A stretch of DNA of 64,000 nt from a bacterium (lineage in GTDB: Bacteria; Patescibacteriota; Gracilibacteria; JAUYGZ01): assembly GCA_030690415.1 (NCBI GenBank), contig JAUYGZ010000019.1, positions 124,001 to 188,000 of the forward strand. Reading direction: 5' to 3'. Under the pieces are notes generated by a model. That model saw nothing but the letters and a program-made list of their open reading frames with translations, did no database searches and had not been told where the DNA came from. Both the position numbers and the translations under genes were made by a program. Numbering within the stretch: position 1 is the stretch's first letter; each line of letters opens with the position of its first letter. Of this stretch, positions 1 through 40,951 are shown piece by piece.

Positions 1-1
1 C

Positions 2-97
2 CTCCTCAAAAAAAGCGAAATCCTCACAGCAGACCAGCTCCGTCAGGGCGCTGAACGAAAAGTTCCTTCAGCAGAATCTCAAGAATCCACGACTTAA
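2..97 (+). CDS. 3' end of an unidentified gene (partial)
   Basis: The frame is open from the left edge to TAA at 95-97 and gives about 31 C-terminal residues, Lys- and Glu-rich and then Ser/Gln-rich at the tail. The gene begins outside the window, so its function cannot be read. It runs in the same direction as the TraC-like gene 128 bases downstream. In related CPR loci small membrane proteins of the same secretion locus often lie just upstream of that gene, but nothing in this tail identifies one. Confidence 0.45.
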   Translation, partial: LLKKSEILTADQLRQGAERKVPSAESQESTT

Positions 98-225: not shown

Positions 226-966
226 ATGACAACTTCACCTGATCCAAATCAACCCAAAGATTCCGTGAAAGCACGACCTCCTCAGCAAAAAAGCGCCGCG
301 ACTCAGCGATTTTTACCGATTGCGGAAATTCATGACAACACGGTGGTTCTTAAAAATGGAGGAATTCGGGCAGTACTCCAAACCACCTCAGTAAACTTCA
401 ATCTCAAATCAGAAGAAGAACAAAACGCACTTATTCAGGGCTATCAATCTTTCCTGAACTCCCTGGAATTCCCCGTCCAGATCGTCGTGCGATCAAAAAA
501 ACTCGATATCGACAACTATCTCGAACACCTAGATGAGATCAAAGAACAACAGGAAAATCCTCTGCTCAAGCAACAGACCGCGGAGTACCAGGAGTACGTC
601 GAAAAGCTGGTCGAATACGCCGATATCATGGAAAAAAAGTTTTATGTCGTCGTTCCGGTCGATCCTCCCACAGGAACCAAAATCAGCTTTATCGACCGAT
701 TCCTGGGCCACATTTTTCCCAGCGATACCATAGCGAAAACGCGAACCCGTCAAAAAAACTTTAAAGACCTCAGAAAAAAACTGACCCAACGGGTCAACCA
801 GGTCGAGCAAGCCCTCGTGGGACTAAATATTAGGACCCAAGAGCTCAATACCAAAGAGCTTATCGAGCTTTACTATCAATCCTACAATCCCATCACAGCA
901 CGCCAGGAAAAAATTAACAAGCTCGAGAAAACCAACATCGAAGACTACGAGGAAGAAAAAAAGTAA
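226..966 (+). CDS. TraC-like domain protein (VirB4 N-terminal-domain-like)
   Basis: This 246-residue soluble protein resembles the free N-terminal TraC-like domain that precedes the ATPase of VirB4-type conjugation proteins; it has no Walker motifs. Residues ~25-60 show the family opening (LPIAEIHDNTVVLKNGG, then RAVL...SVNFNLKS), residues ~60-165 the central alpha/beta part (FPVQIVV...KKFYVVVP), and the last 70 residues are a Lys/Glu-rich helical tail ending in EEEKK. In CPR genomes this domain is usually encoded just upstream of a VirB4-like ATPase gene; here the next gene is on the other strand, so the ATPase partner must be elsewhere. It probably works at the inner face of a type IV secretion-like channel. 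The start has a CCCC-ATG context with no Shine-Dalgarno motif. The family call is from pattern recognition. Confidence 0.65.
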   Translation: MTTSPDPNQPKDSVKARPPQQKSAATQRFLPIAEIHDNTVVLKNGGIRAVLQTTSVNFNLKSEEEQNALIQGYQSFLNSLEFPVQIVVRSKKLDIDNYLEHLDEIKEQQENPLLKQQTAEYQEYVEKLVEYADIMEKKFYVVVPVDPPTGTKISFIDRFLGHIFPSDTIAKTRTRQKNFKDLRKKLTQRVNQVEQALVGLNIRTQELNTKELIELYYQSYNPITARQEKINKLEKTNIEDYEEEKK

Positions 967-968
967 GT

Positions 969-2033
969 TCATCTTTTCTCCAGAATATCCCCCCTCACCC
1001 GCATATCTTCCTGACGATCGAGCAGACAAAACAAGACAAAATACCCGAGAAAAAAGAAAGGAACCAGGAGTAGATACCACTGTTGATGGACCATCATCAA
1101 AAAGAAAAAGCCTGTAAAAACTGAAACCACGATGCCGATAAACACTCGTTGATCACCATAGGCTTTTTGATGGAGAGGAGAAAAGAGTCGCGAAAAGAAT
1201 CCCGAAAGAAATGGAATACGCCTGAATGAATGCTCCAAAAAAAACTGAGAAGCAAACACTGATCGCACCAAAAACGTTGTCAGAAACCCGAGAAGGAGAA
1301 CCCCCAGAAAAAACACAAATAACTCGTGGAAAAAGAAGTTTCTTGCCGAGAGCAGAGCAAGATCAGGTGATGACAAGGTATCACTCCAACTGAAGAGAAA
1401 AGAAACAAACAGCATCATAAGTCCACTCACCCAGACAAATTCCATGAAAATCTGAGGAGTATTCAGGTACGCAGTATCAACAAGTCGAATAAAGTACTGA
1501 ATCACAAAAAGAAAACTCATAAGCTCCAATAAAGAAATGAGAATATCAAATGCCATCCCTTCAAAAAGCAAGATCCACAGATAACTCAGAAAAAGAGAAA
1601 GAAGCGAAAACAAGATCACTCCCCAGGGCATGGAAAAAGAGCGTCGAAAAAGGCTCTTCAGCCGCTCCAGACGAAAGGTCACGACAGACCAGAGAGCAAT
1701 CCCCAGAAGAACCCCGACGGCAAGACCCCCATACACCAAAAGGTAAAAAACCAGCTGGGAAAGAAGGGCCGAAGCACTTCCTGCCTGAACCAGGTAAACC
1801 AATGACCAATCTGTACGATACACCACCAGAGACTCCAAAAAACCCGGAACCCACATGACAAAGGCACCCCATATGACAGCCACAATAAGAGCAGCCCCAT
1901 AATACCAGGACAATCGACGGACATTTCGAAAAAAAGAATACACAATAACCGCCAGAACCAGAGCAAAAAGCACCACACTTCCTCCTCCCCACCAGGGATT
2001 AGCCAGAAACCGCTCTAAGAGAATTTGCCACAT
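969..2033 (-). CDS. Polytopic membrane protein of unknown function
   Basis: The 354-residue product is dominated by long hydrophobic stretches separated by short basic loops, giving roughly eight or nine membrane helices over nearly the full length (first at ~18-36, last at ~325-343). The C-terminus is charged and probably cytosolic. I do not recognise a family. It is the last gene of a minus-strand series (13,645 to 969) of secretion/surface proteins, and its stop lies 2 bases from the stop of the convergent TraC-like gene. Position and topology would suit a VirB6-like channel component, but that is inference from context only. Confidence 0.7.
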   Translation of the reverse strand: MWQILLERFLANPWWGGGSVVLFALVLAVIVYSFFRNVRRLSWYYGAALIVAVIWGAFVMWVPGFLESLVVYRTDWSLVYLVQAGSASALLSQLVFYLLVYGGLAVGVLLGIALWSVVTFRLERLKSLFRRSFSMPWGVILFSLLSLFLSYLWILLFEGMAFDILISLLELMSFLFVIQYFIRLVDTAYLNTPQIFMEFVWVSGLMMLFVSFLFSWSDTLSSPDLALLSARNFFFHELFVFFLGVLLLGFLTTFLVRSVFASQFFLEHSFRRIPFLSGFFSRLFSPLHQKAYGDQRVFIGIVVSVFTGFFFLMMVHQQWYLLLVPFFFLGYFVLFCLLDRQEDMRVRGDILEKR

Positions 2034-2081: not shown

Positions 2082-4184
2082 TCATCCTCCTTCAACTATT
2101 ATTTCCGCTTGCTTCCGACTCACCTGCCCTGAACGGTCATAGACCTCCAGTGTAACGGTATGAGTTCCGGCTTGCTCAAACACATGGTCTGGCTTCACCA
2201 CTCGACTGATCTGACCATCACCAAACTCCCAGTAATAACGGCCTATCTGCCCTTGAGATAGAGACGCATCAAAGAAAACCTTTTGTCCCACCTGCGGTGA
2301 TACCGGATTAAACGTAAAATCAGCCTGAAGCTCGACTTCTCGAGCCACGATAAGGAATTCTTTGGAAGCCCTCTTCCCATCCTCTGTAAGCACAGAAACC
2401 GTGACCTTACTCTCCCCCACCTGGCTATACACATGAGTCTGACGAGCACTTCCGATAAGCTCCGGCGTCCCGTCTCCGAAGTTCCAGGTATAAGAGATAA
2501 TCTTGCTATCACCTGCCTGCGAAGCGGAAGCATCGAAGGTAACCTCCAATGGAATTGATCCGGAATAGCTGCTCACATCAACCTCCACCACTACCTCTGA
2601 GGTACCCACCTGAACGGTCAACTGAGCGGTTGAACTGAGGTCATCATCATCCACAACCGTCAACTTCGCTTCAAATGTCCCCTCCACGACATAGGTATGA
2701 GAAGCCTCAGCCACCAGAGAGTCATCGACGCCATCCCCATCGAAATCCCAGCGATACTCGACAATTGTCCCGTCGATATCCTTCGACTGACCGGCATCAA
2801 ACTGAAGCATGAACGGAGCACTTCCCGTCACTACATTTCCAGTGAGGTTTTGGTTTTTGAGTCGAATAACCGCTTGAGGAGTATTGGTCTGACGTTCAAC
2901 ATAAACGATCTCGGTGCCTTCAAGCTTCGTCCCACTGATGCCTACCGTAGTCAGATGAACCGTATATTCACCAGGATTGGAGTATTGATGCTGAATCGTC
3001 CTACCAGAAGCCAATGCGCTATTATCTCCAAAATCCCATTCATAGGACTGGATTCGTTCGCCAAGGTAGGAATTAGAGCCGTCAAAAGAAACCATAAAAG
3101 GAGCCTGTCCCTTCAGCCCCGGCCGGGCAATGATAACCGCCTCTTTCGTCCTTCCTCTGAGGAAATCAAGCGATAAGCGCTCCTCAACCTTCTCTCCATT
3201 ATTATCAGTTACCGTTAGAATAATCTCACGAGTTCCGACCTCTTCAAAAGACCAGCTGACCTTGGATCCCGTCTGATCCACCTGACCATCCGCGTCGAAA
3301 TCCCACTCATAGGCAATAATACTCCCATCCGGATCAACAGATTTTGAAGCATCAAAAGAAACCGTAACCGGTGCCTCCAACAGTTGAGGAGAGTACTCAA
3401 CATGAACCGTTGATCTCACATTAGCGATGGTAACCAAACTGGGAATAACGACTTCTTTTCCATCCGATAAAATCAATTTTACAGCAACATTATAGACTCC
3501 CGCTGCATTCCCTCGACTCGTATACCGATACTGAATATCCCGACCATTCCCATCATCAAAAACACCATCTCCATCCAAATCCCAGCTGTAGGAAACAATA
3601 CCGGACCGGATATAGACCTGTTCAATATCCCGGGCACTGAAAGTGATATCAATGGGAGCAGAAAGATTGATCGTAGTCGCGGGATCAGTCAGCACGACAG
3701 CCTGAGGACCACCGGAAAGCTGAAGCTGGGAAATATAAAAATAGAGCACGATCCAGATAAAAACAAAGAACAGAAAAAAGAGTCCTGAGACCAGGGCCAA
3801 GATCAAAGACCGTTTTTTCTTTTCCTGCTCAATTTTGGCGGAGGTCAGACGTCTAAAGAGTCCCACCAGAAAGAGAATAAACGCAATCAGTGACAGAAAA
3901 CCAAAGACCAAGCTCACCAGAGTCTGCAGGAGCTGCTGAAGTAAGGCGGGCTCAACTCCTAAAGCCTGAAGAATGGGATTATCCCCTCCCCCTTGAAGAA
4001 GCATCACCACCAAAAAAACCAGAAATAGAACAAAAAGAAAGATAAAAACTCCAATAAACGTAAAAAACAAACTGGTTCTGGATTTTTTTAGACCAACTGC
4101 GGGAGTCGTCTGGGGTGGCGAAACAGGAGTGCTTCCTCCCGGAGGCGTCACAGGATTACGAGACGGCATCTGATCATTGGCCAT
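2082..4184 (-). CDS. Membrane-anchored protein with six PKD domains
   Basis: The 700-residue product starts with a Pro-rich cytosolic segment (1-35) and three membrane helices (~38-65, ~85-110, ~125-150). Six PKD (Ig-like) domains of 85-95 residues follow, each marked by the family signature: SWDLDGDG, YEWDFDADG, YEWDFGDN, YRWDFDGDG, YTWNFGDG and YYWEFGDG. PKD domains are extracellular beta-sandwiches that act as spacers or adhesive modules, so the protein is expected to project from the cell surface. It lies 90 bases downstream of the 2,038-residue pilin-PKD protein on the same strand and probably belongs to its operon. Interacting partners are not known. Confidence 0.85.
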   Translation of the reverse strand: MANDQMPSRNPVTPPGGSTPVSPPQTTPAVGLKKSRTSLFFTFIGVFIFLFVLFLVFLVVMLLQGGGDNPILQALGVEPALLQQLLQTLVSLVFGFLSLIAFILFLVGLFRRLTSAKIEQEKKKRSLILALVSGLFFLFFVFIWIVLYFYISQLQLSGGPQAVVLTDPATTINLSAPIDITFSARDIEQVYIRSGIVSYSWDLDGDGVFDDGNGRDIQYRYTSRGNAAGVYNVAVKLILSDGKEVVIPSLVTIANVRSTVHVEYSPQLLEAPVTVSFDASKSVDPDGSIIAYEWDFDADGQVDQTGSKVSWSFEEVGTREIILTVTDNNGEKVEERLSLDFLRGRTKEAVIIARPGLKGQAPFMVSFDGSNSYLGERIQSYEWDFGDNSALASGRTIQHQYSNPGEYTVHLTTVGISGTKLEGTEIVYVERQTNTPQAVIRLKNQNLTGNVVTGSAPFMLQFDAGQSKDIDGTIVEYRWDFDGDGVDDSLVAEASHTYVVEGTFEAKLTVVDDDDLSSTAQLTVQVGTSEVVVEVDVSSYSGSIPLEVTFDASASQAGDSKIISYTWNFGDGTPELIGSARQTHVYSQVGESKVTVSVLTEDGKRASKEFLIVAREVELQADFTFNPVSPQVGQKVFFDASLSQGQIGRYYWEFGDGQISRVVKPDHVFEQAGTHTVTLEVYDRSGQVSRKQAEIIVEGG

Positions 4185-4274: not shown

Positions 4275-7200
4275 CTATCCCTTCAACCAATCCGGAATAG
4301 AACCACTTGTTCCGGATGGAGGACCTTTCCTAGCATCCTTATCCTCATTTTCAGTCGAGAGTCCAGAATCAATAGTCGGGGGATTGTCTTTCTTATCACT
4401 TAACTCTTGACTATCGACCTCCTCCCTATCGACCTCGTAAGAGTCTGAGCCTGTCGAAGACTTCTTCTGAGGCACCACTTCAACGACCTCAGGCTCTACC
4501 GGCTCAACAAAGGAAGGCGTTTCTGAAGACCCAACTGGCGTTTGTGGAATCTCAAGTTCCTCCCGACGTTGTCGAATGGTCCTGACCACCACAAAAACCA
4601 CTCCTGCGACCCCTAAAACGATCACAATTACGAAAATAATCCAGAAAATGGAGAGTCCTCCGGCATCGGGTATAATCTCAGAAACTGGAATCACCGGAGT
4701 AATATCTTCACCCGGTACCGGCACGATCTCTTCCTCAGCAACCCCATCTCCTGGCTGACGAATAGTCAAATCCTGATCAATTACAATGAGCTGCTGTTTC
4801 TGATCAATCTCACCCAGTTCATCCATAATGGTCAGAGTGACCTGATAAAGTCCGGCGATATCAAGCACCTTTACTGGCTCAGGAAGAGTGGAAATACCGA
4901 GGAGTTCACCATCTCTGCCTTCAGCCGCTTCTACAGATCCCGTCACCAGGTACCGGCCTCCAAAAGAAGAAATTACAAAATGCGTGATATTATCTTCCAC
5001 CCTTCCTTCAGAAACGAAGACCGGGACACCGGATGAACCGACCTGATAGAGCTTGGGTGAAAAGATGACGCCATTGAAGAGAATCTCTGCGTCCTGAGAC
5101 AGCTCAAGACTCTGTGACAATCCGGTATCATACACCAACGCGGTGTCCTCACCCTCAACGATAAACGTTTGATCAGAGAGCTCGAAAACGAGCGTCCCCA
5201 CAAAAGGCTGAGCCTGCTCATCCAGGAAGGTCGTTCCCTCCGTCACGCGAAGAACCAGATTCTGAGAGCCTAAGACAGCTTCACGAGGCATAACTCCTTG
5301 AGCGACGTCAGCGGCAGCCAAATCGAGAGAATGCTTTACCCACACCGAAGGCTGATTAAACTCTCGAACCCCAATCGTCAGATCATCTCTTTGTTCCCAC
5401 TGTTCCCACTCCAAAATATCCCCCACATTAAGTCGACGGAAACTCCACTCATAAGCAGTCAACTCTGGATTTAACGAAGCATCAATCGTAGAAGTATTGG
5501 TGAAGACTACTTCATTTTCACTCAAAACATACTCAAAATCCGCAACCGGAAGAGTAAGTCCACCCCGGATAAAGACGGTCTGAGTGTATTCTCCGATCAG
5601 CCCCCTCGCGGACACCGCCTCCAAAACCACCTCATATGCTCCCACCTGGGGATAAGCATGGCTGAAGGTAGGCTCAAAACTGATTTCATCCACCAATCCA
5701 TCTCCATCAAAATCCCAACGGTACTCTTGGACCGCCTCATCAGGGAAATGAGTCCCACGAGCATCAAAAAGAATTTCCTGCTGAGGCTCGGCAAAAGAGG
5801 AGCTCACGGTGAAGGTCACGACCGGAACAGTCTCCAAAAGACTCAGGACCGCATCCGGATTGTCGACCTGATTCAGATTGAAATCGGGTTTTTCATCAAA
5901 AGTAATATCCACTACGGCCGACTTTTCCTGACCATTGATCGCCACGACCGTGAGCTTGGCTCTGATCTGACCCTGAGTATCACGATACGTTGCCTTGAAT
6001 GAAGACCCGTCTTTCCAGGACTTGTGGGTTTTGTTATCGATATCATTATCCGTGATCTCATCACTATCACTATCGACAAAAATATTGGTATCCAATCGAT
6101 ACTCTTGAATCTGACCGGTCGATGTCAGTGAATTGAAAACCACGTCGGAGCTGGGAGGAGTCAAATACAATCGTCCATCGATATCATCTCGGGGAGGATT
6201 GGTCTTCAAAACCGCCTTCAGTTTGACGTCCAGTTTCGTCCCCAAAGGACCTCTTTCCTCCTGCTTGAGAAAGGGTATCCGACGAACCACCTGGTCACTG
6301 ACCCCAACTGAATCCCTGACTCTCAGACCAACCAAGACATCTCGGTTCCCTTCGAATTCGTGGATGGGAGTAATCAAAGCACTATCAGCATCATCATCAT
6401 TGATACCATTTCCATTCGTATCGATCGTGGTATCAAAATCCCAAGCATAGCTGAGATTTTTGTCCGGCAAGGCGGGATCGACTGTGGAATTACTGATGAA
6501 CCGAACCTGTACACCATCCTGAATAAAGATAAAAGCAGCTTCAGGGGGGACCGAATCAGCTCTGACGTGAAGCGTCATATCATACTGGGAGCTGAGACCG
6601 TTTTTGGTGACCTTGAGCGTTGGTCGGTACACCCCGGGCTGAGGGTACCGATAGTTCACCCTGGCACCAGATAAGTCTCGCTCATACTCTCCATCCCCCT
6701 GCACATCCCACTGGTAAGCGGCGGACGGAATAAACTCTCCCAAAGGATCTTTTGTCGTGGAACTGAAGGTGACCAGTTCGTTGACCTTCACCGTGCCTTT
6801 ATCGACGACAAACTCAGCAACAGGCGCGACATTCGGACCGTTCGTCACCACCAAAGGCTCACTGTCTCCCTCAGCCGTAAAGCTCGAAACCCGTGCCCCG
6901 TCATTATCTTCGATCTCCACCGCGAAGGAATAATTCGTCTGAGTACCTTCGACCCCTCTCGGGCCGATGACAAAAGTCGTCCGAGGAGCATCCGTCACCC
7001 GGGCATCCAGCTCCCGCCCACCCTGTCCCTCTTCATAATACCACCACCGATAACGCACCACCCTACCATCCGGATCACGAACCCCCAGAGCAGAAACACT
7101 GACGGTCACCGGAGTGACAATGAGTTGCTGAGGGGCAGAGTACCTCACGTCAGTAAGAAGGGGCGGCATATTGACCACTTCGATACTGATCGTCTCCGCC

Positions 7201-10200
7201 TGATCTTCCTGACTGGTGCTCAAATCCTGCACCGTCAGATCAACATCGATACAGCCTCCCTCCGTCAGCTCGTTAAATATCCGGGTAAAGCTTCGGCTGC
7301 GATAAATCTCATCAAAGTCTTCGATCTGCCAGAGATATGAGATCCCTGAAGACTCCCCACGAATACTCACCGATTTCCCGGCATCGAAGAGCACACTGTC
7401 TTTTCGGGTCACCTCGATACAGGCTGATTGCTCCAGATCCTGCTCAATTCCATTCACATAGACCTGTGTCAATGCTATAGGAGCGTTTTGAAGACCCACA
7501 CGAACCTGCTTGGTCAGAGAATTAATATTATTCGAACCATCCTCCACTTCCAGACTCACCTGATACTTACCCTGCCGGGCATACTTGTGAACCACAGGTT
7601 CCTTCACCGCTACCTGAGTATCTCCATCACCAAAATCCCAAAAGAATCCCAAAGCCTTATCACTCTGAGGCGTAAAGGTCACCAGTTCGTTGACATGAGC
7701 CCCCGGCTTATCAATGGTAAAATCAACCCCCAGAAGTGTCGTGACCTTCACGGTATCGAAGACGGTGTCACTCTGAGATCCCGTAAAGACCGTCAGACGA
7801 ACCTGGTGCTCCCCGAGGCTTTGGAATTCATAGAAAATACGGGCATCCGTACCCGCGTCCACCCGTTCATAGGTAAAAGGACCAGTGGCTCCCGCTGTAC
7901 GCTGCTGTAAAACAACCCCATCCACCTCCCAGGAATACGAAAGCACTGAGTTATTCAAGGGGAAATCTGGGTGAAAACTCTGGGAAGCGTCCAACAAAAC
8001 CCTCGCGGGACGAATAGTCTCCAAAAACGAAGCCCTAAACGAAGCAATCGGTGCCTGTTCACGAATAGAAATCGTCTTCGAAGTCTTATCAAACTGATTC
8101 GCGGCTCCTCCGGTTGAAACTTCGAGCATTACCTCGTAGTCTCCCGGAGCCGAAAACTGATAGCTGACCGTCTGCTGCTGGAAACTGGTAATCTCCTGAC
8201 TCGTCGTCCCTACTTTTTGCAAAATCCTGAACGTGTAATTGGCAATAGGAGAAGCAGACTGTGAAGAGAGTGCAGTAAAGGTAAATCCGGTACTCGTGGT
8301 CCCCGTCAGCCCAGGCTCAATCTGAAGCTGTGCGATAACATCACCAAACTGAAGATTTACCGTCCGCAGCACATCCCCTTGGGAATCCCTCGCCTGAAGC
8401 CGAACAAATTTTACTCCTGTGGGATCGGTATACTGGCACTGAAACTGCCAGTTTGATTGATTGCCCTGAAGAACAGCATTCACGCCATTCCCACAGTCAT
8501 AGTTGAGGAACTCAAAGTTTCCCTGACTCGTCTGAGAATCCCGAAGATCAAAGGTGACGGGAGCCTGTGTCCCGGCAAGAATCCTGACGGGCTGAGACCC
8601 CTGATCGTCCTCACCATTAACCTTCACCACCAAACTGGCCCGAGAAGGGTACACACTGATCCGTGCTGAACTAAGACCTGAGATGGCAGCATCGACATCA
8701 TTGGCTTCCGCCACTCCCGGATTGACGGTGTTGAACGTACAGGCACTCCTCACCAGGAGCTGAACATTGAAAATCCCTGAAGTCGTGAAATCATAATTGA
8801 AAAAGACTCCTGTCCCATCCGGAACACTGCTGGGCGAACTCAGGATCCCCCCTATCCCCTGACTAAAGTCCAGATTCTTATTGACGAACCAGAGATAGTT
8901 ATCATTCGAAACAGGACAGAACTCTTCATAAGGATCCTGAGTATCAGAAGCATCAAAATTGACTCGGAAAGCTGAACCATCGGAAGGCAGGGGCCCCTCG
9001 AAAGGACTCGCCTGAATCGAAGGACTCACCCTCTTAAAGGACTGCACAATGGATAAGAATTCCTGATACACGTCATTGAACGTCTCAAAATCACTAAAGC
9101 TCAGATCCGAGCTCATCTTATCCAAAAGCCGAACTAGCTTGCCAAAGGGATTACCGCTCGCATCATAACCACAATAATCCAACACATCTCTGGTCTGCGG
9201 AAGTGTGGCGCAAGTAATCCGGATAAAATTTTCCAGCTCATGAAAGTTGTTGGAAATCTGCCTCATGAGCAGATCACGAGCATCAGGCTGAAGCCCAAGT
9301 CCAAAATCCACCACGCCATCATTATCATCATCCGTATCGAGATCCTCTCTGAACACATCCAGGACAACAATCCCTCTAAAACGAGTCTGCGGGGTAACCG
9401 AAATATTATTGGGATTCCCGGGAGGATAGGCGGCAAAGAAAGCCTGTGAACACTCCTGGGTATCGATCAGCCCATCCGAGTCGCGGTCACAGTCCTCTGA
9501 ATCAGGTATACCATCGCCATCGATGTCACTGCTTCGCTCGTACTCCGCGCATCCCTGTTGAGCCAAAATATACTGGTCGTAAGCCGCCTTATCCGTCCGA
9601 TCGATCTGAATTTTAAGACGCTCAACATTCAGCACTTTGAACGACACGAAGCTGAGCGTATTGGAACAAAGATCAGAAACATCCGACACCCCATCACCAT
9701 CATCATCCGTGTCGTCTTGATCCACGACTCCATCATTATCGTCATCCGTATCTAAGGGATTGGCAATCCCATCAGAATCCGTATCCGGAATCACCTCGAT
9801 AGCCGAACACCCTGAATTATTGACAGAAAGACCGATGGGCGTACTGGGACAGAGGTCTCCGACCTCGCGAAGTCCGGTCAATAAGGGATAAATGAAATCC
9901 TTCCCTGTGGGGTCAAACAAACTCTCAAAAGTTTCAACGGGACTGTCTGAAGGGGAAATACTGCCGGGAGATCCCCCACCGGCGCCTCCTCCTTCCCCAC
10001 CTCCCACCACACCCACGAGAGCATTGACGATGGCATACGAAAGAAGAATGACGAGGATCCCCAGTGCGACATAAGTAATAATCGTCTTTGATTTGCTCGT
10101 CATCTCCTCATTCCCAAAATTCGCCACGTACATGATCCCCGCGTAAATGATGGCCGTAATCGCCACCAACCCCAGGAATCCGAGGACATAATTCGTGATC

Positions 10201-10391
10201 ATCACTACCAGGGTGGTCAAATCACCTCCACCTGACTGAAGTCCCTGAGCGTAGCCCGGGATCTCCGTGGGAGGGATAATATCAAAACGAACCTCCTGGG
10301 CGAAGACCTCGTAAACAATCTGGAAAAATCCGGATCCTGCCAAAAGGACGATAACAAGTGCGAGGAGAAGAAATTTCAGGGGGTTTTTCAT
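4275..10391 (-). CDS. Giant surface protein: pilin hairpin, TSP3 calcium repeats, PKD repeats, C-terminal anchor
   Basis: The 2,038-residue product begins with a signal peptide (~1-31). Residues 60-125 form a VirB2/TrbC-like two-helix hairpin with the connecting loop NFGNEEMTSKSK. Thrombospondin type-3-like calcium repeats follow (~202-240, ~290-320 and ~355-365; DTDSDG, DTDDDNDG, DIDGDG). The central ~1,400 residues hold many Ig-like/PKD domains (for example FFWDFGDGD, YRWDFDGDG, YAWDFD). Near ~1,910-1,935 there is one strong membrane helix, then a ~100-residue acidic tail that should be cytosolic. The hairpin closely resembles those in the three proteins encoded immediately upstream on this strand, so the protein may join the same membrane assembly while exposing a long adhesive stalk. 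The tail contains repeat-derived segments (KSSTGSDSYE; NEDKDARKG). Function is inferred from architecture alone. Confidence 0.85.
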   Translation of the reverse strand: MKNPLKFLLLALVIVLLAGSGFFQIVYEVFAQEVRFDIIPPTEIPGYAQGLQSGGGDLTTLVVMITNYVLGFLGLVAITAIIYAGIMYVANFGNEEMTSKSKTIITYVALGILVILLSYAIVNALVGVVGGGEGGGAGGGSPGSISPSDSPVETFESLFDPTGKDFIYPLLTGLREVGDLCPSTPIGLSVNNSGCSAIEVIPDTDSDGIANPLDTDDDNDGVVDQDDTDDDGDGVSDVSDLCSNTLSFVSFKVLNVERLKIQIDRTDKAAYDQYILAQQGCAEYERSSDIDGDGIPDSEDCDRDSDGLIDTQECSQAFFAAYPPGNPNNISVTPQTRFRGIVVLDVFREDLDTDDDNDGVVDFGLGLQPDARDLLMRQISNNFHELENFIRITCATLPQTRDVLDYCGYDASGNPFGKLVRLLDKMSSDLSFSDFETFNDVYQEFLSIVQSFKRVSPSIQASPFEGPLPSDGSAFRVNFDASDTQDPYEEFCPVSNDNYLWFVNKNLDFSQGIGGILSSPSSVPDGTGVFFNYDFTTSGIFNVQLLVRSACTFNTVNPGVAEANDVDAAISGLSSARISVYPSRASLVVKVNGEDDQGSQPVRILAGTQAPVTFDLRDSQTSQGNFEFLNYDCGNGVNAVLQGNQSNWQFQCQYTDPTGVKFVRLQARDSQGDVLRTVNLQFGDVIAQLQIEPGLTGTTSTGFTFTALSSQSASPIANYTFRILQKVGTTSQEITSFQQQTVSYQFSAPGDYEVMLEVSTGGAANQFDKTSKTISIREQAPIASFRASFLETIRPARVLLDASQSFHPDFPLNNSVLSYSWEVDGVVLQQRTAGATGPFTYERVDAGTDARIFYEFQSLGEHQVRLTVFTGSQSDTVFDTVKVTTLLGVDFTIDKPGAHVNELVTFTPQSDKALGFFWDFGDGDTQVAVKEPVVHKYARQGKYQVSLEVEDGSNNINSLTKQVRVGLQNAPIALTQVYVNGIEQDLEQSACIEVTRKDSVLFDAGKSVSIRGESSGISYLWQIEDFDEIYRSRSFTRIFNELTEGGCIDVDLTVQDLSTSQEDQAETISIEVVNMPPLLTDVRYSAPQQLIVTPVTVSVSALGVRDPDGRVVRYRWWYYEEGQGGRELDARVTDAPRTTFVIGPRGVEGTQTNYSFAVEIEDNDGARVSSFTAEGDSEPLVVTNGPNVAPVAEFVVDKGTVKVNELVTFSSTTKDPLGEFIPSAAYQWDVQGDGEYERDLSGARVNYRYPQPGVYRPTLKVTKNGLSSQYDMTLHVRADSVPPEAAFIFIQDGVQVRFISNSTVDPALPDKNLSYAWDFDTTIDTNGNGINDDDADSALITPIHEFEGNRDVLVGLRVRDSVGVSDQVVRRIPFLKQEERGPLGTKLDVKLKAVLKTNPPRDDIDGRLYLTPPSSDVVFNSLTSTGQIQEYRLDTNIFVDSDSDEITDNDIDNKTHKSWKDGSSFKATYRDTQGQIRAKLTVVAINGQEKSAVVDITFDEKPDFNLNQVDNPDAVLSLLETVPVVTFTVSSSFAEPQQEILFDARGTHFPDEAVQEYRWDFDGDGLVDEISFEPTFSHAYPQVGAYEVVLEAVSARGLIGEYTQTVFIRGGLTLPVADFEYVLSENEVVFTNTSTIDASLNPELTAYEWSFRRLNVGDILEWEQWEQRDDLTIGVREFNQPSVWVKHSLDLAAADVAQGVMPREAVLGSQNLVLRVTEGTTFLDEQAQPFVGTLVFELSDQTFIVEGEDTALVYDTGLSQSLELSQDAEILFNGVIFSPKLYQVGSSGVPVFVSEGRVEDNITHFVISSFGGRYLVTGSVEAAEGRDGELLGISTLPEPVKVLDIAGLYQVTLTIMDELGEIDQKQQLIVIDQDLTIRQPGDGVAEEEIVPVPGEDITPVIPVSEIIPDAGGLSIFWIIFVIVIVLGVAGVVFVVVRTIRQRREELEIPQTPVGSSETPSFVEPVEPEVVEVVPQKKSSTGSDSYEVDREEVDSQELSDKKDNPPTIDSGLSTENEDKDARKGPPSGTSGSIPDWLKG
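4433..4463. repeat. In-frame KSSTGS/DSYE element, short copy
   Basis: This 31-base stretch consists of CCTCGTAAGAGTCTG joined directly to AGCCTGTCGAAGACTT. The same two halves occur at 34,622-34,685, in the GT4 gene, separated there by 33 extra bases. On the minus strand it encodes KSSTGSDSYE in the cytosolic tail of the giant surface protein. The core CTTCGACAGGCT resembles small dispersed repeats seen in many bacterial genomes. Confidence 0.65.
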
Positions 10392-10408: not shown

Positions 10409-11425
10409 CTAAAACGTCGTAAACGCCAACAGCGTATTCACCACCGTATACGCAGAAAAAATAATGAGAATACCGATAATCACATATGTCATCATAGTCT
10501 TGGCCTTCGTATGCAGGTCTTCACTCGTGAAAGAAAGAATGTAAAAGAGACCTGCCGCGACAAACACAAAGACACTGACCACACTGACATACGGCAGAGT
10601 CGCATTGGTGTAAAACACAATCAAGTCACTCAGACTCGTCTCTCTCGAAACTCCAATGGGAGCCACATCCGGCGAAGGCACAGAAATCCCCTCACCAGTG
10701 TAGACGGGAGTAAACCCTCTAGCCGATTCCAATGCGGATTGAGCACTTGAAAGATTCTCAAGTGCTGATTTATACTCAGGAGTTTCTCCTTGATTCGTAT
10801 TAAAGACAGCAGGATTATAAGTTCTCTCCACTTCAGCCTGAGCCTCATCAACTGCCTGCTGTAACTGCTGAAGAGTTAAATTTACTGAACCAGTCCCAGA
10901 ATACCCACTCCCCGACGGATTATACCCCGTTTGACCGGTCGAAGAAATCGAACCACCCGTCGTAAATAGACTCTGCGAATCCGAACCCGAGGAAGAGCTC
11001 AAGGGACCTGCCCCGCCGATCGTGCCCAAGTACGAGCAACGCTCCGACCATCGCCGTGCGGCGCTCTCCGAAGGTGTTCCATTGACAATAATCTGTCCAT
11101 TTCGCTTCCCACGACAGAGCTCCTGATCCTGGACTTCTTCGGACACCCCATCGATGGTGGCCGCGCTCAGGATATTCTTGGAATTTAGCTTGCAGCGTAC
11201 CAGACCATCAACCCAGATATTGTGAACCTCATTGAAATGGTATTCCTTGTGAATAAGACATTCGTCGATAGAATCCGGATCCTTGCTCCCTGAAAATAGC
11301 CCTCCGGGCTGATCGTAGTTCACGGGATCATTACTGAAATCAAAAATCTGAGCAAGAGCAAACGGAGTCTGTACAAAAATGCTGAACAGAAGAATCGTCG
11401 CGACAAAATGAGTCAAAACCCGCAT
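10409..11425 (-). CDS. Exported protein with C-terminal VirB2-like hairpin
   Basis: The 338-residue product has a signal peptide (~1-25). A long Ser/Gly/Gln-rich exposed region with several Cys residues (~26-255) follows, containing a short coiled coil at ~180-230 (LQQLQQAVDEAQAEVERTY). A two-helix hairpin occupies 266-338, with the loop FTSEDLHTKAKTMMTYV and ending AYTVVNTLLAF. This places the pilin-like module at the C-terminus, whereas the giant protein downstream carries it at the N-terminus. The two genes are 17 bases apart and surely co-transcribed. The hairpin resembles TrbC/VirB2 pilins, but the large N-terminal region means it is not a simple pilin. Confidence 0.7.
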   Translation of the reverse strand: MRVLTHFVATILLFSIFVQTPFALAQIFDFSNDPVNYDQPGGLFSGSKDPDSIDECLIHKEYHFNEVHNIWVDGLVRCKLNSKNILSAATIDGVSEEVQDQELCRGKRNGQIIVNGTPSESAARRWSERCSYLGTIGGAGPLSSSSGSDSQSLFTTGGSISSTGQTGYNPSGSGYSGTGSVNLTLQQLQQAVDEAQAEVERTYNPAVFNTNQGETPEYKSALENLSSAQSALESARGFTPVYTGEGISVPSPDVAPIGVSRETSLSDLIVFYTNATLPYVSVVSVFVFVAAGLFYILSFTSEDLHTKAKTMMTYVIIGILIIFSAYTVVNTLLAFTTF

Positions 11426-11721
11426 GAAATTAGAAAAAAATTTCTCCGTTCAGCATAACAAAAGAACCTCAATTTCTAAAAAATCAAATGGTATGCAGAT
11501 CATATTGAGGAAACATCGTCTTCCTCATTTTCCTGTTTGTTGGCATTCCGACCGGAGTCGTGGGGTTCGTGGCTTGGAACAAAACAGAGGAATCCCTTTT
11601 CTGAATTCTTCACTAGAAACGGAATGGCTGGAGTTGGTGCAGGGACGAAGTCGAGGGGAGTCCCCTCTCCTTCCAGGAGAGGGTCAGGGTGAGGCGGAAG
11701 GGAGCCATTTCTTTTTTTAGC
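11426..11721. other. Intergenic stretch with CCCTCTCC palindrome
   Basis: No gene is visible here. At 11,663-11,683 there is a perfect 8-base inverted repeat, CCCTCTCC - TTCCA - GGAGAGGG, followed by TCAGGGTGAGG. This wording is that of small dispersed palindromic repeats found in many bacterial genomes; only one copy lies in the window. On the minus strand an extended -10 like element (TGtTATGCT, around 11,452-11,460) lies about 27 bases before the start at 11,425 and could be a promoter for that gene, though no good -35 accompanies it. Confidence 0.4.
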
Positions 11722-12648
11722 CTACGCCGCCAACACCGTCCTCAACAAGGTCGCCACAATCGTATATGCGCTGTATGCTACGAAGACTCCTATCACCACA
11801 TTTTTGAGGGTGGACTTTACCTTGCTCACCATATCTTCATTTCCGAAATTCCCCACCATCACGACCCCTGAAATCACGAAGGTCACAAAGATAACCACTC
11901 CCAAAAAACCCAAAATATAATTGGAAAGCCCCTGCAATTGCTGTTCGAACGCTGGAACATTGACACCTGCATATCCCCCCTGCCCAAAAATAATCCCATC
12001 GACCAGGGTCTCCGCGAGACCAATAATAATAATCCCCATGGCCGCATACCCGACGATTTTTTTCTGCTTGTTGATCTGATCCTCATCCCCCGCGTTAGCA
12101 ATCAATCGCATCGAGGCAATCACCAGCACCAAAATGGCAGCCGACCCTGAGAAAGAGAGAAAGAGTCGAACGATAGTTTTGATCTGAATGACCGCTTGAT
12201 TCGCCACCCCCAAGGCATCCTGTTCATTAAGCAGATAAACGCCCTCTCCCTGATAAAGGAGATTGTAAACAAAGCTCGCGGACAAGGAAAAGACCACCAG
12301 CCCAAGCATGATATACACCACATTCATCTTTTGCTTCGTCATCTCCTCGCTCGCGGATGACTGGGCAGTCACCAGCTGATATCCCGCAATAAAAAGCATC
12401 AGAACCGCAATTGATCCCAAAACGAGGGTCAATAAACCTCCCACTCGCTTCAACAAATCCTGAAATCCCTGTACTCCCGTACCAACCGTCTGTCCTCCAA
12501 TAGTGGTCAAACCCACATCCGGTAAATGCTTGATCCCTTCCACTTCATGCCCAAAAGGCAAGGTGATCTGATTAGCCAAAACCACCGGAGTCGCCACCAC
12601 GACGAAAAATCCAAACAATAGAGCGGTAACAAGCATTTTCTTGATCAC
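11722..12648 (-). CDS. Triple VirB2-like hairpin membrane protein A
   Basis: The 308-residue product has a signal peptide (1-25) and then three copies of one two-helix module, at ~65-132, ~155-220 and ~240-305. Each copy is helix, short polar loop with a Lys pair (EEMTKQKMN, DEDQINKQKK, NEDMVSKVKS), then helix ending in a Gly/Ala-rich pattern such as IGVFVAYSAYTIV. The third copy is nearly the same as the hairpin of the 2,038-residue protein (NFGNE-M-SK-K). TrbC/VirB2 pilins have one such hairpin and polymerise; a covalent trimer of the module is unusual. It lies 28 bases from the sister protein at 12,677 and in its operon. A role in a membrane channel or pilus base is inference. Confidence 0.7.
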   Translation of the reverse strand: MIKKMLVTALLFGFFVVVATPVVLANQITLPFGHEVEGIKHLPDVGLTTIGGQTVGTGVQGFQDLLKRVGGLLTLVLGSIAVLMLFIAGYQLVTAQSSASEEMTKQKMNVVYIMLGLVVFSLSASFVYNLLYQGEGVYLLNEQDALGVANQAVIQIKTIVRLFLSFSGSAAILVLVIASMRLIANAGDEDQINKQKKIVGYAAMGIIIIGLAETLVDGIIFGQGGYAGVNVPAFEQQLQGLSNYILGFLGVVIFVTFVISGVVMVGNFGNEDMVSKVKSTLKNVVIGVFVAYSAYTIVATLLRTVLAA

Positions 12649-12676
12649 AGATTTCTCATTAAGGACTCAATGGGAT

Positions 12677-13645
12677 CTAAGGACTTGGCGGAATCTCAAG
12701 CGGTCTTTCGGATGGCTCATTGGAAGGAGTCAGCGTCCTCCCCCCCGCCGCAAACTCATGAACAATCGTATACGAAGAAAAAGCAATCACCAGCCCCAGA
12801 AGTGAGCCAATAATGATATTGGTCGCCTTAGTCCCCCGTTCTTCACTCCCCGCGCTGAAGGTATACATGGCCCCTCCAATGACCAGGGTAAAAAGGAACA
12901 ACCCGCTCAAAGAAGCGAGAAAAAGATCCGTGACATTAGTAATCAAAGCAATACCACCTCCCACATTCACTTGTGTCACTCCGGGGAGAGTATTGATATC
13001 AAAAACCACATTGACGAGCGCCTCCGAAATCATGATCAGAAGAAAACCCACAAACCCATAAAGAAAGACCTCTTTTTCTTTAGTCGCCGTCTCTTCTTCC
13101 GGGCTGAGAAGAATCGTCGCTCCCGATTTCACGATATAAAAAAAGGCAATCCCCCCGAGAGTGTAACGAAGAAACTTCACAATAATACCCAACTGAACAG
13201 TAAAACGTGAGGCGGTAATACTCACATCACCTTCGGTACTGATAAAGGTCGTCGCACCAGAGCTGCCGGATTTATACAGTGAAAACGTTTCACTGAGATA
13301 TTGAGCCAAAATAACAAAAGCCACTCCCACCAGCACATACAGAAAGTTCTTCATGATCTGACTAAAACGCTCCTCCTCCCCTCTCGCGATAATCAGCTGA
13401 ATCCCAAATCCCGCGATGATGAAAACTAAAACAGGCCCCAAAAGCTGTTTAGCGGTGTCAAAAAGACCGTTGACAAAAGATACCACCCCAGCGGCTCCTC
13501 CCTGATCCTCAGCAACCTGAACTCCAGGAAAATTCGTCCCCAAAGGCAGCAAAGGAGTCCCTTGTGCAAACACAAAAGACTGGACAGAAAAATGAAGTCC
13601 GACCGTAATAAGCAAACCGAGAAAAAAGAGACGAAGGAGAGACAT
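12677..13645 (-). CDS. Triple VirB2-like hairpin membrane protein B
   Basis: First gene of the minus-strand surface operon. The 322-residue product has a signal peptide (~1-27) and three two-helix modules at ~60-124, ~153-216 and ~235-298, with loops RGEEERFSQIMKN, SPEEETATKEKE and SAGSEERGTKATN. The last module ends SSYTIVHEF, matching the AYTIV ending of protein A. A short Pro-rich tail follows. The divergence between A and B is large, so the duplication is old. The start ATG lies 22 bases from an extended -10 promoter on the minus strand, so the leader is very short, and there is no Shine-Dalgarno motif. Confidence 0.7.
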   Translation of the reverse strand: MSLLRLFFLGLLITVGLHFSVQSFVFAQGTPLLPLGTNFPGVQVAEDQGGAAGVVSFVNGLFDTAKQLLGPVLVFIIAGFGIQLIIARGEEERFSQIMKNFLYVLVGVAFVILAQYLSETFSLYKSGSSGATTFISTEGDVSITASRFTVQLGIIVKFLRYTLGGIAFFYIVKSGATILLSPEEETATKEKEVFLYGFVGFLLIMISEALVNVVFDINTLPGVTQVNVGGGIALITNVTDLFLASLSGLFLFTLVIGGAMYTFSAGSEERGTKATNIIIGSLLGLVIAFSSYTIVHEFAAGGRTLTPSNEPSERPLEIPPSP

Positions 13646-38416: not shown

Positions 38417-40951
38417 ATGCCTTTCCTCGGCAATTTCGAAACCGAATTCTGGCCAACCCTACTGAATTGGACTCTCCTGATTCTGGGAGTCTATATCCTT
38501 TGGAAATTTTTGATATGGCTTGCCAGAATGCTGCATGGCATGTGGGAAAGCCGTCAAAAGGTCTTTATTCGGATCAAAACGCCTCGTTCAGAATCACAAA
38601 AAGATAAGGAAAAAGAAACCGAAAAGGACTTTAAAGAACGAGTCGCCATCATGGATGGGATCTATCGATCACTCTACGAAATCCAGGAGCTCAACCTCTG
38701 GAACCGTATCCGAACGCTTGTTTGGCAAAACGACTACGCCACCTTTGAGCTGGTCTACGATAAAGGCCTCATTCACTTCTATATCGTGACCCACAAGCGC
38801 TACAGCGAGCTCCTGCAAAAACAAATCACCAGTATTTATCCTGACGCTGATGTCGCTGAAGTGAAGTCCTACGACATCACCCCAAAAGGCTCACGAGTCA
38901 AAGCCTACTTCATGTATCTGGCCAGACTAACCTATTTCCCCATCCGAACCTATAAAAACATGGGCAATGACCCGCTCAATGAAATGACCAATGTCTTTTC
39001 AAAACTCAAAGAAACGGACCGGGCAGCCATTCAGATCCATATCAATCCCCGGAATCGGGCCTGGAACAAAGAAGCCAAAGCCGTCGCGGAGCGACTCTTC
39101 AAAAAACAAAAAATCGGATTTTACTACACCTTTTTCCGAAAAATCCCCATCCTGGGATTTATTGCCTCCATTTTTCAAGGTATTTTCGGAGTTATCATCA
39201 AAGGCGAGTCCCCAACAAGCGCGCCCGGCGCCAACAGTGGGGATAGCTACATCCGGATGCTGGCCACAGAAGAGGAAAACCTCAAACAAATGGGAGAAAA
39301 ATCAAATCAGGAAGGTTTCGACACCACCATTCGTATTGTGGCCAGCGCAGAAAGCTCCGCGAGAGCGTCTCAAATTTGCGACTCCATCGTCCTGGGTTTC
39401 AATACCTTCAGCAACCAGGGATCCAACTGGTTTCAGAATCGACGAATAGTGCCCATCGACCTCATCAACAATTTCCTCATGTTGGTAAATTTTAAGATGC
39501 GACTTCAAGCCTATGGTGAAAAAACATCCATCCTCGTCCCGGAAGAGCTGAGCTCTCTCTTCCACATCCCCACCAGCCGCTACAACTACACCCCCATCAT
39601 CGACTGGCTGGAATACAAGGTATTGCCCCCTCCCACGAATCTTCTGAAAGAAGGCATTTTATTGGGAAATAACGTCTACCAGAATAAAAAAACCCCTATC
39701 TATATCGCGCCCAACGACAGAACCCGACACATGTACATCATCGGTAAATCCGGCTCCGGTAAATCAGCTCTGATCAGCTACATGGCAAGGCAAGATATCA
39801 AACAAGGCAACGGCTGCTGCGTCATTGATCCCCACGGAGACCTCATCGAGGACTGTCTGAAATACATCCCGAAAGAACGAATCAAAGACGTCATTCACTT
39901 CAACCCTTCCGACCAGAACCGACCAATGGGGCTCAACATGCTCCAGGCCGACGACCCCGCCCAAATGGATATGGCCTCTTCACAAGCCACCGAGATCTTC
40001 ATCAAGCTTTTCGGAGACGAAATCTTCGGACCTCGTATCCAACACTACTTCCGCAATGCCTGTCTCACCCTCATGGAAGACAAAGACGAAGGTGCCACGT
40101 TGATCGATGTGCCTCGAATCTTCGTCGATGAGGAATTTATGAAATACAAAGTTGCGAAGGTAAAAAATCCCGTCGTAAAGTCCTTCTGGGAACACGAGTA
40201 CGCCCAGACCGGAGAACGGGAACGCCAGGAAATGATTCCCTATTTCAGCGCGAAATTCGGTCCCTTTATCACGAACAGCATCATGAGAAATACCATCGGC
40301 CAGCCAAAATCGGCGTTTAATTTCCGAAATGCCATGGACGAAGGAAAAATCCTGCTGATCAATCTCTCCAAAGGAAAGATTGGTGATCTCAACACCCAGC
40401 TCCTGGGACTGGTCTGCGTCGCCCAACTCCAAATGGCCGCCATGAGTCGCACCGATCTTCCGGAAAACCAGCGAAGACCCTTTTATCTGTACGTGGATGA
40501 ATTTCAAAACTTTGCCACTGATAGCTTCGCGAGCATCCTCTCGGAAGCCAGAAAATACCAGCTTGCTCTCATCCTCGCCCACCAGTACATCGGCCAGCTA
40601 ACCGTCTCCCGATTTGGAACGACCAGCACCGCCATCAGGGACGCCGTCTTTGGAAATGCGGGCTCCATCCTAGCCTTCAAAATCGGCGCGGAAGACGCGG
40701 AATACATGGCCAAGGAGTTTGCCCCGGTACTCTCAGAACAAGACGTAATCAGTATTTCGAACTATAAAGCCTACTGCAAATTGAGCATCAACAACGCTCC
40801 TTCACGACCCTTCAGTGTAGAAACCATCTGGGACCCCTCCGGGGCCAATGAAAAAGGTGCTCAAATCGTCAAAGAATACTGCAGCCTGAAGTACGGCCGC
40901 AAACGGATCTTCGTCGATCAGGAAATTGAAGCAAGGATAGGGATCACATAA
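38417..40951 (+). CDS. TraG/VirD4-like type IV secretion ATPase
   Basis: An 844-residue membrane-bound ATPase related to conjugative coupling proteins. One or two N-terminal membrane helices (~15-40) are followed by a ~380-residue region with alpha/beta modules (IRIVASAESSARASQICDSI). The motor domain has Walker A IGKSGSGKSAL (~442), CCVIDPHGDLIEDCL, a Walker B-like FYLYVDEFQNFATDSF (~690) and ILAHQYIGQL. Such proteins pump DNA or protein into a type IV secretion channel. It is 25 kb from the surface operon at 1-13.6 kb but could power it. It is preceded by heptamers with no Shine-Dalgarno motif. Confidence 0.88.
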   Translation: MPFLGNFETEFWPTLLNWTLLILGVYILWKFLIWLARMLHGMWESRQKVFIRIKTPRSESQKDKEKETEKDFKERVAIMDGIYRSLYEIQELNLWNRIRTLVWQNDYATFELVYDKGLIHFYIVTHKRYSELLQKQITSIYPDADVAEVKSYDITPKGSRVKAYFMYLARLTYFPIRTYKNMGNDPLNEMTNVFSKLKETDRAAIQIHINPRNRAWNKEAKAVAERLFKKQKIGFYYTFFRKIPILGFIASIFQGIFGVIIKGESPTSAPGANSGDSYIRMLATEEENLKQMGEKSNQEGFDTTIRIVASAESSARASQICDSIVLGFNTFSNQGSNWFQNRRIVPIDLINNFLMLVNFKMRLQAYGEKTSILVPEELSSLFHIPTSRYNYTPIIDWLEYKVLPPPTNLLKEGILLGNNVYQNKKTPIYIAPNDRTRHMYIIGKSGSGKSALISYMARQDIKQGNGCCVIDPHGDLIEDCLKYIPKERIKDVIHFNPSDQNRPMGLNMLQADDPAQMDMASSQATEIFIKLFGDEIFGPRIQHYFRNACLTLMEDKDEGATLIDVPRIFVDEEFMKYKVAKVKNPVVKSFWEHEYAQTGERERQEMIPYFSAKFGPFITNSIMRNTIGQPKSAFNFRNAMDEGKILLINLSKGKIGDLNTQLLGLVCVAQLQMAAMSRTDLPENQRRPFYLYVDEFQNFATDSFASILSEARKYQLALILAHQYIGQLTVSRFGTTSTAIRDAVFGNAGSILAFKIGAEDAEYMAKEFAPVLSEQDVISISNYKAYCKLSINNAPSRPFSVETIWDPSGANEKGAQIVKEYCSLKYGRKRIFVDQEIEARIGIT

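What the first reader, a model, noticed from the sequence alone, without database searches (positions are those of the whole stretch)
10409..13645. Eight VirB2-like hairpins in four adjacent proteins, six of them as covalent trimers
Seen: the proteins at 11,722-12,648 and 12,677-13,645 each hold three tandem two-helix modules with a Lys-bearing polar loop. The proteins at 10,409-11,425 and 4,275-10,391 each hold one. The loops NFGNEDMVSK and NFGNEEMTSK and the endings AYTIV/AYTVV tie them together. Known: TrbC/VirB2 pilins are single hairpins that polymerise. Inference: this may be a CPR-specific envelope machine in which pre-joined pilin trimers and pilin-tipped giant adhesins co-assemble, with the TraC-like (226) and TraG-like (38,417) proteins as partners. 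I know of no described system with this architecture.
Basis: partly seen in the sequence, partly recalled or inferred. Interest (0 to 1): 0.8.

Follow-up and report, generated by a model that had tools for sequence, protein, structure and literature searches.

The report
Pre-joined triple pilins in dependent bacteria
A whole class of tiny, probably host-dependent bacteria (Gracilibacteria, including Peregrinibacteria) carries two neighbouring genes, each joining three building blocks of a known secretion pilus end to end, often beside a giant sticky protein that carries the same building block, which suggests a reshaped version of their type IV secretion machine.

Summary
Proteins 12677-13645 and 11722-12648 each hold three VirB2-like hairpins (Pfam T4SS_pilin PF18895, three stretches each, over the curated cut-off). 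Proteins 10409-11425 and 4275-10391 hold one each, and the PKD protein at 2082-4184 carries a weak ninth. The pair is not a local oddity. Adjacent 3+3 pairs occur at all 38 class loci examined (two loci are 4+4), with a strong profile match in 175 of 193 class genomes, most misses being one family. The six positions keep their identity across families, and 18 of 38 loci have a hairpin-bearing giant downstream. Named relatives are Ca. Peribacteria and Peregrinibacteria. Other Patescibacteria carry the same hairpins mostly as arrays of separate small genes; the published Southlakia array has six and is essential. So this is the patescibacterial type IV secretion pilin set in a covalently fused form, with giants anchored by the same hairpin. 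The T4SS is known; I found no description of this fused, class-wide architecture. Other parts are scattered: PrgI and TrsD beside the operon, VirB4 near dnaA, a VirB6-like protein elsewhere. Co-assembly, a pilus, or pilin-tipped adhesion are inferences. One-to-one descent from the six-gene array was tested and not supported.

The parts
12677..13645 (-). Protein A, 322 aa: predicted signal peptide plus three VirB2-like hairpins, first gene of the operon
   Evidence: Pfam PF18895 three stretches, E 9e-15; 33 of 33 A-type sequences aligned across the class, the window's included, match PF18895
13289..13468 (-). hairpin A1 (residues 60-119)
13010..13183 (-). hairpin A2 (residues 155-212)
12758..12937 (-). 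hairpin A3 (residues 237-296)
   Evidence: genome PF18895 hit
11722..12648 (-). Protein B, 308 aa: predicted signal peptide plus three VirB2-like hairpins
   Evidence: PF18895 three stretches E 4e-23, TrbC/VirB2 PF04956 over cut-off; AlphaFold2 model shows three helical hairpins, pLDDT 68
12265..12432 (-). hairpin B1 (residues 73-128)
11998..12177 (-). hairpin B2 (residues 158-217)
11749..11931 (-). hairpin B3 (residues 240-300)
   Evidence: single-module AlphaFold2 model pLDDT 89.4
10409..11425 (-). Protein C, 338 aa: predicted signal peptide, about 250 aa extracytoplasmic region, one C-terminal hairpin (274-331 = 10433-10606); orthologue seen only in the window's own family (L055; a single-hairpin 307 aa protein sits at the same place in L057)
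4275..10391 (-). Giant, 2038 aa: predicted signal peptide, one N-terminal hairpin (64-123 = 10023-10202), calcium-type DxDxDG repeats, PKD domains, C-terminal TM (1918-1936) followed by a charged tail
2082..4184 (-). PKD protein, 700 aa: one N-terminal TM, a weak VirB2-like hairpin (88-142 = 3759-3923), six PKD stretches; orthologues follow the giant across the class
969..2033 (-). Polytopic membrane protein, 354 aa, about 9 TM, unknown; seen at the same place in the sister genus (L055, L183)
226..966 (+). TrsD-like protein, 246 aa: VirB4 N-terminal domain without the ATPase, convergent with the operon
   Evidence: NCBIfam NF041427 TrsD 9e-13 and NF045975 VirB4 1e-13, both below the models' own cut-offs
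1..97 (+). 3' end of PrgI/VirB3-like gene (412 aa; starts 1.1 kb before the window, L017:17859-19097)
   Evidence: Pfam PrgI PF12666 E 1e-9
38417..40951 (+). VirD4/TraG-type ATPase, 844 aa, possible coupling protein of the system
   Evidence: PF10412 E 1e-13, PF12696 E 1e-5

Best explanation
These are the VirB2-like pilin components of the Gracilibacteria type IV secretion system, rebuilt by fusion. Proteins A and B are exported (predicted signal peptides) and sit with their ends outside and all six Lys/Arg-bearing loops inside, as VirB2 hairpins do. The most likely working is that A and B assemble together, so that six non-identical hairpins in fixed order form the repeating unit of a membrane conduit or short pilus. 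It would be energised by VirB4 (split into the TrsD piece here and the ATPase on contig C1), with PrgI/VirB3 and a VirB6-like platform. The giant PKD proteins carry one hairpin of the same kind at their N-terminus, which lets them plug into or dock on that assembly and present a long adhesive stalk to the host cell. Shown: hairpin homology, triple fusion, positional conservation of the six hairpins, class-wide pairing, the regular giant and PKD neighbours, and presence of VirB4 and a VirB6-like protein in most genomes. Inferred: topology (from residue statistics), co-assembly, conduit or pilus function, adhesion and tethering.
For: PF18895/PF04956 matches. Loops are rich in K/R (2.74 per 14 aa) against linkers (0.64 per 14 aa), as expected for loop-inside hairpins. 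The single module folds as a long two-helix hairpin, pLDDT 89. Positions A1..B3 find the same position as nearest neighbour in other genomes in 13-15 of 18 loci. Adjacent pairs at all 38 class loci examined; profile match in 175 of 193 class genomes. Giant downstream in 18 of 38, PKD-700 after it, secE/nusG/rplK beside it in about 17. TrsD and PrgI adjacent in the window and the sister genus. VirB4 in 39 of 40 class genomes. Elsewhere in the phylum the same hairpins lie in arrays next to TrbL/VirB6-like genes, and a Saccharibacterial array is essential for epibiotic growth (PMC10633639, PMC12857230).
Against: The pair is not beside virB4 or virB6 in this class, so membership in one machine rests on homology, on PrgI/TrsD adjacency in one family, and on co-occurrence. 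One complete class genome (G018) has the pair and giant but gave no VirB4 match. Foldseek gave no significant hit to any solved pilin, which is expected for two helices but is no support. Some giants have a second, C-terminal TM anchor. No filament has been shown for any patescibacterial T4SS in what I read.
Confidence: 0.58

Rival explanations
1. A and B are not pilins in action but a fixed, non-polymerising membrane pore or platform that evolved from fused pilins, doing a VirB6-like job at the base of the machine.
For: Six TM helices per protein in fixed order with conserved positional identity is more like a channel protein than a polymerising subunit; many class genomes also keep a separate lone single-hairpin gene that could be the polymerising pilin.
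Against: No TrbL/VirB6 match in A or B. A separate VirB6-like 8-TM protein is found in 36 of 40 class genomes, including this one, so the platform role appears taken.
Confidence: 0.22
2. The operon is a surface-adhesion module that borrowed the pilin hairpin as a membrane anchor and has no working link with secretion.
For: In much of the class the pair and giant sit beside secE/nusG/ribosomal genes, not T4SS genes; the giant and PKD proteins dominate the locus.
Against: Triple fusion in two proteins is hard to explain as an anchor; PrgI-TrsD abut the operon in the window's family; pilin arrays in related classes lie next to VirB6-like genes.
Confidence: 0.15
3. On origin, not function: the three-hairpin pair is the fused, one-to-one counterpart of the six-gene pilin array of Saccharimonadia.
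For: Six hairpins in both (PMC12857230; arrays of exactly six in L119, L149, L151, L153, L167).
Against: Gene order is not collinear: the collinear assignment ranks 589 and 503 of 720. Array sizes vary from 5 to 10, and P4-P6 of the Saccharimonadia are close to each other, pointing to separate expansions.
Confidence: 0.15
4. The modules are unrelated membrane helices that resemble VirB2 by chance.
For: Two-helix hairpins are simple; matches of C and D alone are below Pfam cut-offs.
Against: A and B pass cut-offs, 33 of 33 A-type sequences match PF18895 and 15 also match TrbC, and other polytopic proteins give no hits.
Confidence: 0.02

Closest known systems
Patescibacterial T4SS with VirB2-like pilin arrays (Southlakia epibionticum SEML1_0006-0019; Quinonero-Coronel et al. 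2025, PMC12102498; Wang et al. 2023, PMC10633639)
   Same: Same hairpin family (PF18895/PF04956), same partner set (VirB4, TrsD, PrgI, VirB6-like), several divergent pilins used together
   Different: There the pilins are separate small genes near virB4; here six hairpins are fused 3+3 in two proteins, away from virB4, with hairpin-bearing PKD giants downstream
TrbC/VirB2 conjugative pilins (Pfam PF04956)
   Same: Predicted signal peptide, two-helix hairpin, positively charged cytoplasmic loop; B passes the Pfam cut-off
   Different: Canonical VirB2 is one hairpin per chain; three per chain with distinct sequences does not fit simple repetition of one identical subunit
VirB6/TrbL platform (PF04610)
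   Same: Polytopic T4SS membrane protein of similar TM number
   Different: No sequence match; a separate VirB6-like protein exists in the genome
PKD-domain giant surface proteins, e.g. those of Vampirococcus lugosii (PMC8080830)
   Same: Very large PKD-bearing membrane proteins proposed to bind the host
   Different: Here the giant carries a T4SS pilin hairpin; the passages of that paper read here do not mention one

Membership tests
T4SS_pilin / TrbC-VirB2 pilin family | Sequence match to the family profile over its curated cut-off | tested here: met
   Met for A and B: 54.9 and 81.8 bits against 26.6 for PF18895; B 28.8 against 27.9 for PF04956. C (19.5) and D (16.3 bits) are below the cut-off on their own, while a relative's giant (L128) passes, E 5e-11
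T4SS_pilin / TrbC-VirB2 pilin family | Two long helices with a short polar, basic loop | tested here: met
   Single-module model H3-38/H43-79, pLDDT 89.4; loop K/R enrichment
T4SS_pilin / TrbC-VirB2 pilin family | Structural match to solved conjugative pilins | tested here: inconclusive
   No Foldseek hit with E <= 0.001; Aeropyrum conjugation pilin 8dfu_0 is rank 38, TM 0.64/0.62, E 3.8
T4SS_pilin / TrbC-VirB2 pilin family | One hairpin per mature subunit | tested here: not met
   Three hairpins in each of A and B; single in C and D. They are therefore described as a fused variant of the family, not as canonical VirB2
T4SS_pilin / TrbC-VirB2 pilin family | Polymerises into a pilus | not testable with these tools
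   Needs microscopy or biochemistry
Patescibacterial (MPF_FATA-type) T4SS | VirB4 ATPase, TrsD, PrgI/VirB3 in the same genome | tested here: met
   VirB4 L018:13695-15830 over the NF045971 cut-off; TrsD 226-966; PrgI L017:17859-19097
Patescibacterial (MPF_FATA-type) T4SS | VirB6-like platform protein | tested here: met
   8-TM 945 aa protein L193:3488-6325, matched by a VirB6-like profile at E 4e-17 over the TM core only; no Pfam TrbL hit
Patescibacterial (MPF_FATA-type) T4SS | Pilin genes near virB4 | tested here: not met
   The pair lies on contig C27, VirB4 on C1; scattering of TrsD and VirB3 is reported for Gracilibacteria (PMC12102498)
VirB6/TrbL | Match to PF04610 | tested here: not met
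   No hit at E <= 1 for A or B
Type IV pilus (T4P) pilin | Match to an N-methylation/type IV pilin profile | tested here: not met
   No such Pfam or NCBIfam hit in A, B, C or D

The most novel reading that the evidence does not exclude
Gracilibacteria have a type IV secretion conduit whose repeating unit is a pseudo-hexamer of six non-identical pilin hairpins supplied by two covalent trimers, into which giant PKD adhesins are inserted through a further hairpin. This would be a hetero-oligomeric pilus or pore with built-in host-binding stalks, and a symmetry unlike the five-fold VirB2 pili (the five-fold comparison is from general knowledge).
Probability: 0.33. Interest if true: 0.82.

Novelty: new variant of a known kind. 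Interest (0 to 1): 0.6.

Why it matters
The Patescibacteria T4SS is, in the one species tested, essential for life on a host, yet nobody knows what it moves or whether it makes a pilus. A lineage that fixed its pilins as two covalent trimers with six conserved, distinct positions suggests that the pilins are used together in a defined order and stoichiometry. That is directly testable: the two proteins could be co-expressed in laboratory E. coli and imaged. The hairpin on the giant adhesins suggests a physical link between host binding and the secretion conduit, which would explain how attachment and transport are coupled.

Tried and rejected
(1) Fused orthologue of the six-gene Saccharimonadia array: number matches, collinearity fails; the best assignment in both directions is A3,B3,A1,B1,A2,B2, but it rests on a few bits and is not claimed. 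(2) Pair replaces VirB6: rejected as the main reading because a VirB6-like protein was found in 36 of 40 class genomes. (3) Hexamer rule (always six hairpins per array): rejected, arrays outside the class vary from 5 to 10. (4) Fold search of the whole trimer model (pTM 0.47) and of the single hairpin against PDB and viral models: not informative. (5) Sequence search of PDB with trimer and hairpin profiles: no relatives. (6) Named loci by scanning genome contigs: an alignment of 16 diverse sequences had no conserved patch and the window protein alone found none; a three-sequence alignment gave two class members and two Saccharibacteria. (8) PADLOC: A, B and C have no hits; hits of the ATPase and TrsD look generic.
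Full report
Observation. The window (bases 124,001-188,000 of contig C27 of a 1.45 Mb genome) contains on its minus strand a run of genes: A (12677-13645), B (11722-12648), C (10409-11425), a giant (4275-10391), a PKD protein (2082-4184) and a polytopic protein (969-2033). Pfam finds T4SS_pilin (PF18895) three times in A and three times in B, over the cut-off, and weakly once each in C and the giant; B also passes the TrbC/VirB2 cut-off. An iterated hairpin profile confirms 3+3+1+1 and adds a weak ninth hairpin in the PKD protein, supported by an orthologue and by direct similarity of that region to lone pilins. Unrelated polytopic proteins at the same loci do not match. The own profile was trained partly on these sequences; the Pfam matches are independent.

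Anatomy. A and B have predicted signal peptides (sequence inspection) and three hairpins each. In 72 triple-hairpin proteins, the 213 intra-hairpin loops hold 2.74 K/R per 14 residues against 0.64 in the linkers, which fits termini outside and loops inside, the VirB2 topology. One loop Lys is nearly invariant in 100 aligned hairpins. AlphaFold2 gives three helical hairpins for B at modest confidence (pLDDT 68, pTM 0.47) and a confident two-helix hairpin for a single module (pLDDT 89). Foldseek does not discriminate such simple folds. The giant has a predicted signal peptide, one hairpin, acidic DxDxDG repeats, PKD domains and a C-terminal TM. In other class members the C-terminal TM is present in some and absent in others, in which case the hairpin is the only predicted membrane segment besides the signal peptide.

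Distribution. A single-sequence search hit 28 of 30 relatives. Neighbourhoods of 18 and then 20 further class loci all show two adjacent multi-hairpin proteins: 3+3, with 4+4 at two loci (L061, L064); at one locus (L144) only two of the three hairpins of one protein are detected. In 18 of these 38 the next hairpin gene downstream is a giant of 1074-2059 aa (the L131 giant is cut at the contig edge; in the window and L055 other genes lie between), usually followed by the PKD protein with three N-terminal TM helices; about 17 lie beside secE/nusG/rplK. A profile of B matches 175 of 193 class genomes at E <= 1e-18, and 16 of the 18 misses belong to one family, f11, whose sampled members have a divergent VirB4. 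Such a match does not by itself prove the 3+3 form in every genome, since it can also be reached by arrays; the 38 loci read in detail are the direct evidence. Named members found by scanning public genomes are Ca. Peribacteria and Peregrinibacteria, so the class is taken to be GTDB's Gracilibacteria (inference; several members have TGA inside frames). Across 18 loci each of the six hairpin positions finds the same position as nearest neighbour in another genome in 13-15 cases, so the six are distinct, old and kept in order.

Outside the class. In other Patescibacteria the same hairpins occur mostly as arrays of separate small genes, with sporadic two-, three- and four-fold fusions (L106, L105 and L109 with four, L117 with three; L117 matches TrbC at 8e-17). 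In Saccharimonadia-like genomes the array stands next to a TrbL/VirB6-like gene and often numbers six. Published work describes these arrays (2-11 genes, PMC12102498), six divergent pilins in Southlakia epibionticum (PMC12857230), and their essentiality (PMC10633639). I tested whether the fused hairpins are the array in the same order; they are not collinear (rank 589 and 503 of 720). Independent expansion and fusion is more likely, or an old reshuffling that sequence can no longer resolve.

The rest of the machine. PrgI/VirB3 and a TrsD-like VirB4 N-terminal domain lie end to end with the operon here and in the sister genus. The VirB4 ATPase lies on contig C1 close to dnaA and lacks that N-terminal domain. 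PMC12102498 reports that TrsD and VirB3 are not near virB4 in Gracilibacteria, and that VirB6 homologues are scarce in Microgenomatia and absent in Gracilibacteria. A VirB6-like profile nevertheless finds a candidate in 36 of 40 class genomes, here an 8-TM protein of 945 aa, matched over the TM core only and without a Pfam hit. This makes it unlikely that A and B simply stand in for VirB6.

Mechanism. The best-supported reading is a T4SS whose VirB2 role is played by two covalent trimers that assemble together, with giants and PKD proteins attached through hairpins of the same kind. The homology, fusion, order and co-occurrence are shown; the topology is inferred from residue statistics; assembly, transport and adhesion are inferred from the families. 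Rivals are a fixed pore derived from pilins and a pure adhesion module; both remain possible.

Novelty. The T4SS and its pilins are known; the 3+3 fusion kept across a class, and pilin hairpins on giant PKD proteins, were not described in anything found in the library. It is a new variant of a known kind. Limits: the literature library holds open-licence papers only, automatic domain databases may already list multi-hairpin architectures, and counts depend on the sampled genomes.

Noticed in passing
L193:3488-6325 (G000 contig C12): A VirB6-like 8-TM protein of 945 aa in this genome, and similar matches in 36 of 40 class genomes, although a published survey reports VirB6 absent in Gracilibacteria.
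   Followed up: partly
L018:10403-15830 (G000 contig C1): The VirB4 ATPase gene lies about 2 kb from dnaA, as reported for other Patescibacteria, and lacks the N-terminal domain that is encoded separately at window 226-966.
   Followed up: partly
L105:1292-2536, L106:3786-4880, L109:4669-5817, L117:4387-5307: Four- and three-hairpin VirB2-like fusions in Patescibacteria outside the class, inside arrays of single-hairpin genes (L117 stands alone in the stretch read).
   Followed up: partly
L115:3259-11578: Outside the class, a 1931 aa protein with a pilin hairpin plus Big_5, TIG and fn3 domains and 109 Cys, next to an 853 aa hairpin protein: the giant-with-hairpin idea is not limited to PKD stalks.
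   Followed up: no
L169-L182 (e.g. L171:9595-10017): A lone single-hairpin gene of about 127-146 aa is present in each of the 14 class genomes looked at, not near virB4 at those loci; a candidate for the polymerising pilin.
   Followed up: partly
57880-64000 (+): Two large ORFs (840 aa and more than 1213 aa, running off the window) without Pfam matches in a stretch of higher G+C (54-55% against about 47%).
   Followed up: no
18017-21583 (-): A 1188 aa protein that combines an N-acetylmuramoyl-L-alanine amidase domain with a SpoIID domain.
   Followed up: no
L061, L064 (genomes G009 and G021): The pair carries four hairpins per protein instead of three; the extra N-terminal hairpins of the two genomes, which belong to one family, are orthologous to each other.
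   Followed up: partly
family f11 of the class (e.g. G012, G023, G432): The only family that mostly lacks the strong match to the fused pair; sampled members have a strongly divergent VirB4 (40-43% identity), several with TGA codons inside frames.
   Followed up: no
L017:11174-11569 and 16219-16599: Two related ORFs upstream of the PrgI gene, one of them a 23S rRNA intervening-sequence protein (PF05635).
   Followed up: no
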